From Gracilinema caldarium DSM 7334 (GTDB lineage: Bacteria > Spirochaetota > Spirochaetia > Treponematales > Breznakiellaceae), in the NCBI RefSeq assembly GCF_000219725.1, contig NC_015732.1, forward strand, positions 248,001 to 312,000: a DNA stretch of 64,000 nt, in the 5' to 3' direction. Of the stretch, positions 46,022 to 50,379 are shown one piece after another (position 1 is the stretch's first letter; every line of letters begins with the position of its first letter). The translations under genes were made by a program, and so were the position numbers. The notes under the pieces are model-generated. The model was not told the DNA's origin and did not search any database. It saw only the letters and a list, made by a program, of their open reading frames with translations.

Positions 46022-46447
46022 TTAGAGTAACTCTTTGTATATGCTCAAAAAATCGATGGGTGAATAAACTGCAATCTGTGAATATTTATAATCCTCAATA
46101 TTTCTTGTTACTATACAGTCACATTGATTTCTTAATGCTGCAAAGTGTTGGACACTATCTTCAAAATCAGAAATTTCATAACCTAATGCATTCAAAATAT
46201 CCGAATGCTCAACTGAAATTACTGTAAGAAATTTTAATAGTTCAGAAATAAACTTGCGTGCTTTTTCATCTCCTCCAACTTTTCTAAGGATGTAGTAAAT
46301 GTTTGTTATTTCATTTGATGTTATAAAACCTAAAGCTATATTGTTTTCAAGTAATAATAAAACCAATTTACTCAATTCAAGAAATGGCTGACGTGCCAGA
46401 GCAACATCAAGTATTATATCCGTATCAATGAGAACACGTTTAATCAT
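46022..46447 (-). CDS. PIN-domain toxin (VapC-like)
   Basis: 141 residues starting MIKRVLIDTDIILDVALARQ, with the first catalytic acids. A later acid lies in CDCIVTRNIEDYK. PIN toxins are metal-dependent RNases. It overlaps its antitoxin by 4 bp and is AT-rich compared with neighbours, suggesting horizontal acquisition. Confidence 0.87.
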   Translation of the reverse strand: MIKRVLIDTDIILDVALARQPFLELSKLVLLLLENNIALGFITSNEITNIYYILRKVGGDEKARKFISELLKFLTVISVEHSDILNALGYEISDFEDSVQHFAALRNQCDCIVTRNIEDYKYSQIAVYSPIDFLSIYKELL

Positions 46448-46698
46448 AAATACTTTTCCGACAACGCTTCTTCTAGTTGTATTTTGTAGTCTTTGCCATC
46501 ATCTTTAAACATTCCTACAAGATTATCAGTAATAGGTGCTTTCATTGTATCAGGAATCACAAACCTTTCATTCCCTACTGATATATTGCGAAGGTATTCC
46601 TCAACAATGCGAGATACACTTTTATTCTTTTTTTGAGCAAAATCTTTAGCTTTCTCAATAATAGACTGATCAATTGTCAAAGTAAGTTTTGAGAGCAT
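46444..46698 (-). CDS. Antitoxin of the PIN pair (DUF6364-like, ribbon-helix-helix)
   Basis: 84 residues. The N-terminus MLSKLTLTIDQSIIEKAKDF and the KSVSRIVEEYLRNI segment match the DUF6364/ribbon-helix-helix antitoxin pattern. The C-terminal half would wrap the toxin. It precedes the toxin, as usual for autoregulated pairs. An inverted repeat lies 11 bp upstream of the start. Confidence 0.83.
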   Translation of the reverse strand: MLSKLTLTIDQSIIEKAKDFAQKKNKSVSRIVEEYLRNISVGNERFVIPDTMKAPITDNLVGMFKDDGKDYKIQLEEALSEKYL

Positions 46699-46936: not shown

Positions 46937-47797
46937 CTATCTCTTCTTCGGCTTAAAAGAGTACAGGTATTGCATCGCAATGCCAAGCCCTTCCAGGGGA
47001 TTGGCCATGTTCTTGCTCAGCTCAATAGAAAAAGTGTTGTTCTGTTCAGTGTACCAGAGGCTACAGGAGAGACGAGCATCGTATTGTATATAGTCTGATC
47101 GCCACTGGTTTTCTGAGCGCGGGGGCAGTGAAAGGGACTGGGACAGATTGCACTGCAGGGCAACCCAGCGGTTCATCAATAGGGTAGCCCCTAAAGAGAG
47201 CCCTGCGGAAGCCGGTTCCCAGTAGGGCTTATCGTCCAGAGTTCCCGGGATGGTAGACCCAAGGTTTACCCCGACTGTAAGGCTCACCGGGTCTGTGTAA
47301 CGGGTGTAGTGCCAGGAAAGGTCAAAGCGGTGCAAGGTTCCGCCAGTCGGGATACTGTCGTGGGCCTCTGCAAGGGCTTTGGAAAGACCTGTGGGGATGG
47401 TCCAGTTGAGACTTACGCGATGTTGGCCCTGGTTTGTCTGGGATATCCACGCTCCATTAAGGTTGATGTCCCCCTGGGCTATGGCGCAGGGGACCGTGTC
47501 CTGTATGGTCAGGGGAAGCTGGACATAAACAGGTAGCGAAAAAGCCGTATACCACCGGTTATTAAGCAGGATATCCGCCTGCGGCTGCAAGTAGAATATG
47601 GTCTGATTGTCACCGTATACGATAGGAAGTATCGAAGCCTCTACCCCAAGGTTGCTTTGCCAGGGGTAGTCTGCTCTTACTGCAAGCCGGTTGTGGTCCG
47701 ATTCCTGGGCCCCCAGGGTAAGGCTCACCAGCAAAAGAATAGTGGCTATGGTACTGCTCAGTGCTAGCAACCTTGGATGTGTGAAATAATACATCAT
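46937..47797 (-). CDS. Predicted outer-membrane beta-barrel protein
   Basis: 286 residues. A signal peptide (LLALSSTIATILLLVSLTLG) is followed by alternating hydrophobic/polar strands throughout, such as HRVSLNWTIPTG and FDLSWHYTRYTDPVSLTVG, the pattern of a barrel of 12 or more strands. No residue motif identifies a family. Its start overlaps the C39-like gene by ATGA, behind CAGGAG. Pairing of a C39 protease and a barrel recalls FapD/FapF of the Pseudomonas Fap amyloid exporter; that is an analogy, not a demonstrated homology. Confidence 0.7.
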   Translation of the reverse strand: MMYYFTHPRLLALSSTIATILLLVSLTLGAQESDHNRLAVRADYPWQSNLGVEASILPIVYGDNQTIFYLQPQADILLNNRWYTAFSLPVYVQLPLTIQDTVPCAIAQGDINLNGAWISQTNQGQHRVSLNWTIPTGLSKALAEAHDSIPTGGTLHRFDLSWHYTRYTDPVSLTVGVNLGSTIPGTLDDKPYWEPASAGLSLGATLLMNRWVALQCNLSQSLSLPPRSENQWRSDYIQYDARLSCSLWYTEQNNTFSIELSKNMANPLEGLGIAMQYLYSFKPKKR

Positions 47798-48408
47798 CGT
47801 ACTCCTGAGTTAAGGTTTGAGAAGTTTTGCAGGGCAGAACGATGTGCGGTACTTTCCTGTACTGCTGTAGTAAGGGCCAGTACTTGTTTGGTGTGGATTG
47901 ATGACTGAACTAACAGGGCATAGCCTTGCCAGCGCCTTTGGAAGTCCTGCCGGGAAAGCCAGTATACACCCTCTGCCGGGTCAGCAATAACAAGAAATTC
48001 ATCATTGGCAGATAGACAGAGGACAAAGTGGCCATCTTGGTCAGCGAAATGGATGACGATTGGAGCATAGGTGGCAGCTGCCTTAATAAGCTGTTCATAG
48101 GTGAAGCGGAACCCTTTAGTTGCAAAACCATGAAGCGCTAAAAGGTCCTGCATATCTTTAAAGGAAATCGCATACTGTTCATGGTCCGTAGCCCTTTGTT
48201 GGCCCAGGGAAAGCCATTCGTTAAGGAAGGTTTCTTCTGAAACGGGACAATTCCAGTATCGGCTCACAAGATCGGAGAGGACCGAGAGCCCGCAGGAAGT
48301 ATCGTAGCCCTGTTCTGCCACATGGGAAAACCGCAACGTTTCTGAGCTTTGCACATTCTGCAAAAGAAGCAACAAGGATAGGATGCCAGCCATAGTACCC
48401 CCGCACAT
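47794..48408 (-). CDS. C39-like cysteine peptidase, exported
   Basis: 204 residues from ATG 48408; ATG 48393 with GGGGGT upstream is an alternative. A short hydrophobic stretch (AGILSLLLLLQNVQS) suggests export or membrane anchoring, though the N-terminus lacks positive charge. C39 residues: EQGYDTSCGLSVLSDLV with Cys39, DGHFVLCLSANDEFLV with His127, then the DPAEG aspartate at 143. In bacteriocin and FapD systems this domain cleaves leader peptides. The frame stays open upstream through the C/G tract but that part is not credible coding. Confidence 0.75.
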   Translation of the reverse strand: MCGGTMAGILSLLLLLQNVQSSETLRFSHVAEQGYDTSCGLSVLSDLVSRYWNCPVSEETFLNEWLSLGQQRATDHEQYAISFKDMQDLLALHGFATKGFRFTYEQLIKAAATYAPIVIHFADQDGHFVLCLSANDEFLVIADPAEGVYWLSRQDFQRRWQGYALLVQSSIHTKQVLALTTAVQESTAHRSALQNFSNLNSGVR

Positions 48409-48430
48409 GGACAAAAAATAAAAATTTGTC

Positions 48431-48465
48431 TTGACAATAGCACGGGGGGGGGGGGGTATAATCAA
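48431..48465. promoter_or_regulatory. Predicted phase-variable bidirectional promoter with a 13-G spacer
   Basis: On the + strand, TTGACA (48431-48436) and TATAAT (48457-48462) are perfect -35 and -10 boxes separated by 20 bases, of which 48444-48456 are thirteen G. Optimal spacing is 17, so a tract of ten G would be strongest and the present length weak. Read backwards, TTGATT (48465-48460) and TATTGT (48439-48434) have the same 20-base spacer and face the C39-like gene. Phase variation through such spacers is known elsewhere, such as Neisseria porA. Confidence 0.75.
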
Positions 48466-48469
48466 GTCA

Positions 48470-48485
48470 TCTTCTGGCCAGAAGA
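48470..48485. promoter_or_regulatory. 16-bp perfect palindrome after the rightward start site
   Basis: TCTTCTGGCCAGAAGA is exactly self-complementary. It begins 8 bp after the rightward -10 box, so it covers the predicted transcription start and the first leader bases. It is a likely operator or 5' leader hairpin. The binding protein is not identifiable. Confidence 0.5.
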
Positions 48486-48511: not shown

Positions 48512-48868
48512 ATGAAAAGGCTTATCGCATCTTTACTGGTTCTGGTTTTCGGTGCTACCATGGTGATGGCGGAAGTGTCTGCAGCAAATTCCCCTCAGGT
48601 ATTACCGAGTGCCTTTGCTGATGTAGAGGGACTTCCCCTCGACGCTCAACAAGCAGATACTGTAGAAGGGAAAGGGGTAATAGGTGCTGTGGTAGGTGCT
48701 TTTAGTGGAGCAGTAAGTGGTGCAATTACTGAAAGTTGCAGAACAGCATATAGAATGGTTACTAAACAAGAAACTAGAAGCGGAAAACAGCTTGCTAATG
48801 ATATTGTAGAAGCTGCTAAATGGGGTGCAATTACTATGGCAGTTTGGGGTGCAGTAACAGGATTATAG
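48512..48868 (+). CDS. Small secreted protein with GxxxG repeats (bacteriocin-like)
   Basis: 118 residues behind GGAGG; the ATG at 48512 is chosen and the frame's TTG at 48431 is the -35 box. A signal peptide (KRLIASLLVLVFGATMVMA) is followed by a polar pro-region, then VIGAVVGAFSGAVSGAI with four-residue-spaced glycines, one Cys in ITESC, a basic middle and a second hydrophobic segment (AAKWGAITMAVWGAVTG). Spaced glycines typify helix-packing peptides such as class IIb bacteriocins. A pore-forming or self-assembling peptide is inferred, possibly matured by the divergent C39-like protease. An amyloid-like subunit is an alternative. Confidence 0.7.
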   Translation: MKRLIASLLVLVFGATMVMAEVSAANSPQVLPSAFADVEGLPLDAQQADTVEGKGVIGAVVGAFSGAVSGAITESCRTAYRMVTKQETRSGKQLANDIVEAAKWGAITMAVWGAVTGL

Positions 48869-48883
48869 AAATAAACTATATTA

Positions 48884-48924
48884 GGCTTTCAAAAACCTAT
48901 AAAGTTTTTGAAAGCCTCTATTTT
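48884..48924 (+). terminator. Terminator or attenuator after the secreted-peptide gene
   Basis: GGCTTTCAAAAAC (48884-48896) and GTTTTTGAAAGCC (48904-48916) form a perfect 13-bp stem with a 7-base loop, followed by TCTATTTT. It lies 15 bp after the peptide stop and before the membrane-protein genes, so it should reduce their expression relative to the peptide. Confidence 0.75.
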
Positions 48925-49167: not shown

Positions 49168-49624
49168 ATGGGAAACAGATACCCTGGTGTTAAGCAAACT
49201 ATAGGTTTGCTTTTGTTGGCCTTATTTTTACAAGTTGTTTTTTCAGCCCTGTTTACGTTAATGTTTAATCTATTAAACATGCCTGTTGATTCTGTTTTTA
49301 TAACCGGGCTGGCGAATCTTATCGCCTTAGGAATTATTATTTTTAGATCTGTAAAACATTTGGGTGGGGATTTTAAAAATAGTTATGCATTAAACTCATT
49401 TAATTGGAAGTATATTATTGTAGGGATTGTCTTTGCGGTAGGGATTTCTATTATTATCTCCGAAATTGATAATCTTACCAGAGTGATCCTTCCAATGCCA
49501 CAATTTGTCCAAACTATTTATAATTCAATGGTGCATGCTGAAGTAAATGTTTGATCTGGTAGGGATTATTCTGATAGCCCTTTCTGCAGGGGTGTATTAT
49601 AAAGGTTTAATATGGAAACAATAA
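49168..49624 (+). pseudogene. Truncated, frameshifted CPBP intramembrane protease remnant
   Basis: The open part (49168-49554, 128 residues) has four membrane helices like the N-terminal half of CPBP proteases (NLTRVILPMPQFV before the active-site helix). It stops at 49552. From 49547 an alternate frame continues the fold: MFDLVGIILIALSAGVYYKG to 49624. There the CPBP motif EExxxR would fall, but the residues are GVYYK, and the rest of the protease is missing. It is therefore catalytically dead; the intact 128-residue part may still be made (AGGAG before ATG). Confidence 0.6.
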
Positions 49625-50379
49625 AAGAAAAGAATTATCGGCTATTTCCAGGCGAGCTGTTGTGGGTAACTGGAACACTATATTTTGGTTGGTTCATTTT
49701 ATATCTTTATAACCCTTTCCAATTAATAAATGGAACACTGTTGTTTTTGTTGTCGATCTATAGTTTTGGATTATCATTGTTTTTATTCATCGAAATACAT
49801 AACAAGACATATCGTATTTTAAACATAATTTTCTCTTGGGTAATAAATACCCTTGATGCGATTTTAAATTATGTGATTTTAAAAGATACAAATATTCATA
49901 ATGTTGATGGTTTTATTATTTTGAGAAACATTGATATGAAAAATTTAGTTTGGTATATCCTTGCAATAATGTTATTTAAAATAGTAATTTCGAGTATTGT
50001 TATTGTCTGTATTGAACGGGGAATGGATTCTCCAAGGGTTAGTTTACAAGGGATGACTTTTTTTGAACTTCAAAATATACCCTATAGGGCAATAAAAAAT
50101 AATTCTGCATATAGAGCCGTAAAATCGCTATTCTCTAAAGATACTGAAACCTTGATGATAGACTTTAAATTTGTTCAGGCCTATTACAAAGTGTTTTATA
50201 AGGCTTTAGGTATGGTGGTTCTTTTACTCGCCTATGTGTTTCTTCATAATTTGGTTGCTTATTTCATAAAGCCAATAAGAAGTTTGCATGTTTCAGTTTA
50301 TGTTTTGTATGGTTTAATAATCGGTAGTATCATTATGCCGGTATTTAATTACATTTATTACAAAAAGGATGCAAATTAA
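49612..50379 (+). CDS. Multi-pass membrane protein, unknown function
   Basis: 255 residues with about six membrane helices and a polar section (~140-190) containing DSPRVSLQGMTFFEL. No family is recognised. It is very AT-rich (Ile, Leu, Phe, Tyr, Asn codons dominate). Its start overlaps the CPBP remnant. A strong terminator follows at 50467, so it closes the rightward peptide operon. Export or immunity is possible. Confidence 0.6.
   Translation: METIKEKNYRLFPGELLWVTGTLYFGWFILYLYNPFQLINGTLLFLLSIYSFGLSLFLFIEIHNKTYRILNIIFSWVINTLDAILNYVILKDTNIHNVDGFIILRNIDMKNLVWYILAIMLFKIVISSIVIVCIERGMDSPRVSLQGMTFFELQNIPYRAIKNNSAYRAVKSLFSKDTETLMIDFKFVQAYYKVFYKALGMVVLLLAYVFLHNLVAYFIKPIRSLHVSVYVLYGLIIGSIIMPVFNYIYYKKDAN

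What the first reader, a model, noticed from the sequence alone, without database searches (positions are those of the whole stretch)
48431..48465. Bidirectional promoter with a 13-G spacer predicted to switch a whole locus on and off
Seen: TTGACA, 20 bases including 13 consecutive G, TATAAT. Read in reverse, TTGATT and TATTGT flank the same 20 bases. Known: homopolymeric G tracts slip during replication, and promoters with such spacers (for example Neisseria porA) are phase variable; poly-G tracts near promoters are also known in Treponema pallidum. Inferred: 10 G would give 17-bp spacing in both directions, so one tract could switch a protease-barrel operon and a peptide operon together. The 13-G state should be low.
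Basis: partly seen in the sequence, partly recalled or inferred. Interest (0 to 1): 0.88.

Follow-up and report, generated by a model that had tools for sequence, protein, structure and literature searches.

The report
Poly-G spacer promoter, Fap-like secretion locus
A run of 13 G's sits exactly between the two RNA-polymerase contact sites of a strong promoter in a free-living hot-spring spirochete, and related species keep the same promoter with G runs of other lengths, so it is probably a copying-slip switch for a small secreted protein and perhaps also for its own export machinery.

Summary
It is the longest G run in the genome (Treponema caldaria H1, finished). The divergent cassette has five complete relatives in three genomes of two genera. 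Four-fold sites are near saturation (0.32-0.44 identical between lineages), yet the intergenic region is 76-91% identical, forward hexamers are nearly invariant, and the G run is kept but variable: 13, 13, 13, 8, 9, and an interrupted G7TGGCG5. Spacers are 20, 20, 21, 15, 23; one copy lost its -10. None is at 17. This supports a slippage-prone, selected contingency promoter of the porA/tp0126 type. Bidirectional control (as in hifA/hifB) is plausible, not shown: the reverse hexamers are 4/6 each and their extra conservation is not significant. Direct evidence of length heterogeneity was not available. The genes were identified: the 'protease-barrel operon' is a FapD-like periplasmic C39 peptidase plus a 12-strand barrel whose best solved match is FapF; the 'peptide' is a Sec-exported small protein with a double-glycine-type leader, apparently monocistronic. 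New variant of a known kind: poly-G promoter switching of a Fap-like secretion pair and its variable substrate.

The parts
48431..48436 (+). -35 hexamer TTGACA (forward); its ACA is shared with the reverse -10
   Evidence: sequence; invariant in all six copies
48437..48443 (+). fixed part of the spacer, ATAGCAC (consensus ATAnCAC)
48444..48456 (+). 13-G tract, length-variable among related copies (7-13 uninterrupted G)
48457..48462 (+). -10 hexamer TATAAT (forward)
   Evidence: TATAAT in three of the other five copies, TACAAT in one, deleted in one
48460..48465 (-). candidate reverse -35, TTGATT
   Evidence: invariant in the five full copies, but not significantly more than the neighbourhood
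48434..48439 (-). candidate reverse -10, TATTGT (TACTGT in one copy)
48471..48484 (.). 14-bp palindrome CTTCTGGCCAGAAG just after the -10; CTTCTGCGCAGAAG in one relative; possible operator or 5' hairpin
   Evidence: RNA fold not better than shuffles
48408..48430 (+). A/T-rich stretch upstream of the -35, UP-element-like
   Evidence: sequence and conservation; function inferred
48512..48868 (+). 118-aa Sec-exported small protein with a GG-type leader (L-12, V-4, G-2) and glycine-zipper-like mature part
   Evidence: SD TGGAGG; signal peptide and leader conserved in relatives, mature part variable
48883..48917 (+). hairpin, terminator-like, after the peptide gene
47794..48393 (-). periplasmic C39 peptidase, FapD-like (C34, H122, D138 invariant)
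   Evidence: Pfam PF03412 2.7e-17; NCBIfam FapD 7e-14, FilB 1e-13, both below cut-off; alignment
46937..47797 (-). outer-membrane 12-strand barrel, FapF-like; start overlaps the end of the C39 gene
   Evidence: AlphaFold pLDDT 77.7; FapF best PDB match, Foldseek 6e-13, VIA Z 23
49168..49554 (+). truncated CPBP-protease-like remnant downstream
   Evidence: full-length counterpart at L057 2888-3796; relation seen by eye
49612..50379 (+). membrane protein shared with the relative G016:C132 (35% identity)

Best explanation
The G tract is the slippage-prone spacer of a strong sigma-70-type promoter. When the tract gains or loses G's during replication, the distance between -35 and -10 changes, and transcription of the divergent locus goes up near 16-18 bp (9-11 G) and down elsewhere. 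The forward promoter drives a Sec-exported small protein with a GG-type leader. The near-palindromic arrangement (CTTGACAATA...TATAATCAAG) gives a weaker reverse promoter with the same spacer, so the FapD/FapF-like export pair is probably tuned by the same tract. Shown: anatomy, conservation of flanks and tract, length differences among related copies, gene identities at family or fold level. Inferred: slippage within a population, effect on transcription, reverse transcription from the same site, low activity at 13 G, and cleavage and export of the peptide by the C39/barrel pair.
For: Exact anatomy. Longest G run in the genome, inside a perfect promoter. Five other complete divergent cassettes in three genomes: uninterrupted G runs of 13, 13, 8, 9 and 7 (G7TGGCG5). 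Between lineages 4-fold sites are 0.32-0.44 identical while intergenic DNA is 0.76-0.91 identical over all pairs. Forward hexamers 11/12 invariant against 26/46 other core columns, p=0.02. Poly-G promoter spacers recur in the family: TTGAC..G8..TANNNT 33 matches against 6 backward controls; one genome (G085) has seven TTGAC-G12..17 sites, most upstream of signal-peptide-bearing, envelope-type proteins. Genome G017 has two cytoplasmic-type GG-leader peptides, each behind TTGACA-N6-G10. Precedents: tp0126 of T. pallidum, optimal at 17 bp, and porA (PMC7864442); hifA/hifB, two divergent genes with one repeat (PMC2651432).
Against: No sequenced copy is at 16-18 bp: 15, 20, 20, 21, 23, and one without its -10. 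No reads, strains or expression data could be examined. Reverse-specific bases are not significantly more conserved than their neighbours (p=0.21), and a tract-independent reverse candidate (GTGnTA-16/17-TATTTT or TACTAT) exists in all six copies. Some copies look damaged (truncated peptide in L057, C39 and barrel fragments in L060).
Confidence: 0.5

Rival explanations
1. Forward-only switch: the tract tunes only the peptide gene; the C39/barrel operon has its own promoter that does not span the tract, such as GTGnTA-16/17-TATTTT nearer to its start.
For: Forward hexamers are perfect while the reverse ones are 4/6 each; tract-independent reverse candidates exist in all copies; no significant extra conservation of reverse-only bases.
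Against: The alternative reverse -35 is weak (3-4/6) and would leave a very short leader; CTTGATT is invariant in all five full copies and its spacing equals the forward spacing.
Confidence: 0.28
2. The G run is a fixed structural or regulatory element (G-quadruplex, A-form spacer, or part of an operator with the CTTCTGGCCAGAAG palindrome), not a slippage switch; long spacing is made good by DNA shape or by an activator.
For: No copy is at 17 bp; a palindrome follows the -10; one copy is interrupted (G7TGGCG5), which would damp slippage.
Against: Lengths from 7 to 13 G would alter any fixed structure; in tp0126 the optimum with a poly-G spacer is still 17 bp (PMC7864442).
Confidence: 0.1
3. 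Decaying cassette: the promoters have drifted out of range and the loci are being lost.
For: Truncated peptide in L057, -10 deletion in L062, C39/barrel fragments in L060, CPBP remnant in the window.
Against: Signal peptides, C39 triad, barrel and flanking promoter bases are conserved beyond near-saturated 4-fold sites.
Confidence: 0.1

Closest known systems
tp0126 (OmpW homologue) promoter, Treponema pallidum
   Same: poly-G between -35 and -10; same phylum; transcription best at 17-bp spacing (PMC7864442)
   Different: one direction only; outer-membrane antigen of a host-restricted species; here a free-living thermophile and a secretion locus
porA promoter, Neisseria meningitidis
   Same: poly-G spacer sets transcription level (PMC7864442, citing the original work)
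   Different: one direction, porin gene, other phylum
hifA/hifB combined promoter, Haemophilus influenzae
   Same: one repeat between two divergent genes, proposed to alter -35/-10 spacing (PMC2651432, citing van Ham 1993 and Geluk 1998)
   Different: (TA)n instead of poly-G; fimbrial genes
Fap system (FapD, FapF), Pseudomonas
   Same: periplasmic C39 peptidase with signal peptide plus 12-strand outer-membrane barrel encoded together; best family and structure matches
   Different: no FapA/B/C/E recognised; substrate is a single small protein with a near-canonical GG-type leader; barrel lacks room for the long N-terminal coiled coil; divergent, poly-G promoter
Class II bacteriocins with double-glycine leader
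   Same: small precursor, GG-type leader (L-12, V-4, G-2), Gly-rich hydrophobic mature part
   Different: Sec signal peptide before the leader; no C39-ABC exporter alongside

Membership tests
Poly-G spacer phase-variable promoters (porA/tp0126 type) | homopolymer lies between -35 and -10 hexamers | tested here: met
Poly-G spacer phase-variable promoters (porA/tp0126 type) | tract length differs while flanks are conserved | tested here: met
   between related copies only, not within a strain
Poly-G spacer phase-variable promoters (porA/tp0126 type) | length heterogeneity within a population | not testable with these tools
   no reads or second isolate available
Poly-G spacer phase-variable promoters (porA/tp0126 type) | transcription depends on tract length | not testable with these tools
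   needs reporter or RNA data
hifA/hifB-type combined divergent promoter | both directions use hexamers flanking the same repeat | tested here: inconclusive
   geometry met; reverse hexamers 4/6 each, extra conservation p=0.21, alternative reverse promoter
Fap secretion system | periplasmic C39 peptidase related to FapD | tested here: inconclusive
   best NCBIfam match FapD, E 7e-14, 51.6 bits against a cut-off of 330; FilB almost equal
Fap secretion system | 12-strand FapF-type barrel | tested here: met
   fold level only: FapF top, Z 23, rmsd 3.1 over 240 residues, 15% identity
Fap secretion system | amyloid subunits FapB/FapC with repeats | not tested
   no such gene recognised by eye near the locus; not searched with Fap models
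Class II bacteriocin with GG leader | double-glycine leader | tested here: inconclusive
   VKGG/VRGG in three relatives, VEGKG and VQGEG in the window and L062; Pfam Bacteriocin_IIc below cut-off

The most novel reading that the evidence does not exclude
One slippage tract co-switches, in opposite directions, a Fap-like two-gene outer-membrane secretion apparatus and its own variable small-protein substrate, as a polymorphic effector cassette found in several copies per genome.
Probability: 0.35. Interest if true: 0.75.

Novelty: new variant of a known kind. Interest (0 to 1): 0.6.

Why it matters
Poly-G promoter switching in treponemes has been studied as immune evasion in T. pallidum. Here it is conserved in a free-living hot-spring species and relatives, in front of secreted small proteins, which suggests a role in competition or surface variation outside any host. 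It also links a FapD/FapF-like pair to substrates with GG-type leaders, which bears on the open question of what FapD cleaves (PMC5557850).

Tried and rejected
Translational switching: TTG-started frames run through the tract into the peptide in some copies, but L058 has a stop and no Shine-Dalgarno precedes the TTG; rejected. A long minus-strand frame through the tract into the C39 gene exists in the window only; the SD and ATG at 48393 are conserved; rejected. mRNA hairpin from the palindrome: folds no better than shuffles. Phage origin: no match; three viral-contig pattern hits were unrelated. Many G6 family hits are a promoter repeatedly found in front of one ~500-aa protein family, usually with the same divergent gene on the other side, and look ordinary.

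Full report
Observation. The bases are as described: TTGACA 48431-48436, ATAGCAC and 13 G to 48456, TATAAT 48457-48462; reversed, TTGATT and TATTGT with the same 20 bp between them. The window is positions 248001-312000 of a single 3,239,340-bp contig, the size of the finished Treponema (Spirochaeta) caldaria H1 genome: hot spring, 48-52 C, 310x coverage, stated error rate below 1 in 100,000 (PMC3739177). The 13-G run is the longest in that genome, and of 19 perfect TTGACA-N12..26-TATAAT sites it is the only one with a G run.

Relatives. C39, peptide, barrel and DNA searches in up to 200 genomes of the family recover the divergent cassette in two further members of the genus (G015 one copy, G016 two plus C39/barrel fragments) and in another genus (G017, two copies). 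Promoter alignment A1: G13-TATAAT (window, G017:C37), G13-A-TACAAT (G017:C41), G8-TATAAT (G016:C132), G7TGGCG5-TATAAT (G015), G9 followed by a deletion that removes the -10 (G016:C219). Between lineages the C39/barrel proteins are 54-59% identical, 4-fold sites 0.32-0.44, intergenic DNA 0.76-0.86; within-genome pairs are closer at 4-fold sites. Forward hexamers are nearly invariant (11/12 columns against 26/46, p=0.02), reverse-only bases 5/6 (p=0.21). So the promoter and its G run appear maintained by selection while length drifts. That is what a contingency promoter predicts. It does not by itself show slippage in a population.

Spacing. Full copies have 20, 20, 21, 15 and 23 bp; none is at 16-18. 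Under the model all would be low or off. This fits an off-by-default locus but is also the main point against the model.

Genes. The minus operon is a C39 peptidase with hydrophobic N-terminus (Pfam C39; best NCBIfam FapD, then FilB, both well below cut-off; C34, H122 and D138 invariant) and a barrel predicted with 12 strands (pLDDT 77.7 from six sequences) whose top solved match is FapF (Foldseek 6e-13, Z 23). FapD is periplasmic and needed for FapC secretion, with its target unclear (PMC5557850). The plus gene encodes a signal peptide almost identical among copies (MKKLIASLLVLVFGATMVMAEV), a leader FADVEG..L...E...V.G[GKE], and a variable mature part. C39/barrel loci in other genera lie near proteins with the same kind of leader. 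Genes after the peptide differ between copies (CPBP protease, aspartyl protease, membrane proteins), as in polymorphic effector loci. A hairpin 15 bp after the peptide gene makes a single-gene transcript likely.

Wider pattern. Poly-G runs between TTGAC and a -10-like hexamer are enriched in the family (33 against 6 backward controls). G085 has seven TTGAC-G12..17 sites, most in front of signal-peptide-bearing, barrel-like or envelope-type proteins. G017 has two GG-leader peptides near a C39-type ABC exporter, each behind TTGACA-N6-G10, though there the -10 is uncertain.

Verdict. A real, conserved, length-variable poly-G spacer promoter, most likely phase variable in the tp0126/porA manner for the peptide gene; co-control of the Fap-like pair is plausible and testable. 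New variant of a known kind.

Noticed in passing
G085 contigs C21, C22, C58, C97, C117, C121, C181 (L116-L122): At least seven TTGAC-G12..17 promoter-like sites, most upstream of signal-peptide-bearing, barrel-like or envelope-type proteins; in L116, L117 and L122 a second G12-13 tract without TTGAC lies about 147 bp away in opposite orientation.
   Followed up: partly
L123 8337-8346 and 10006-10015 (G017:C12): Two near-identical promoter regions TTGACAAATTTC-G10-TAGGCT before different class-IIc-like GG-leader peptides, near a C39-type ABC exporter.
   Followed up: partly
L086 (G161:C48) 1526-1556: TTGACA-TTTATGGGGGAGGGGGGGG-TATAAT (19-bp spacer) upstream of a 225-aa outer-membrane-type protein in another genus of the family.
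   Followed up: no
L037, L046, L049-L052: A promoter TTGACAAG..GGGGGGCCTATAAT recurs 6 bp before the ATG of a ~500-aa protein family; possibly leaderless transcripts.
   Followed up: no
L001 6337-6348 (genome 1000336-1000347): 12-G run, second longest in the genome, with no promoter hexamers; it lies inside open frames and just upstream of a possible ATG.
   Followed up: partly
window 46022-46698: PIN-domain protein and DUF6364 partner, a likely toxin-antitoxin pair beside the barrel gene.
   Followed up: no
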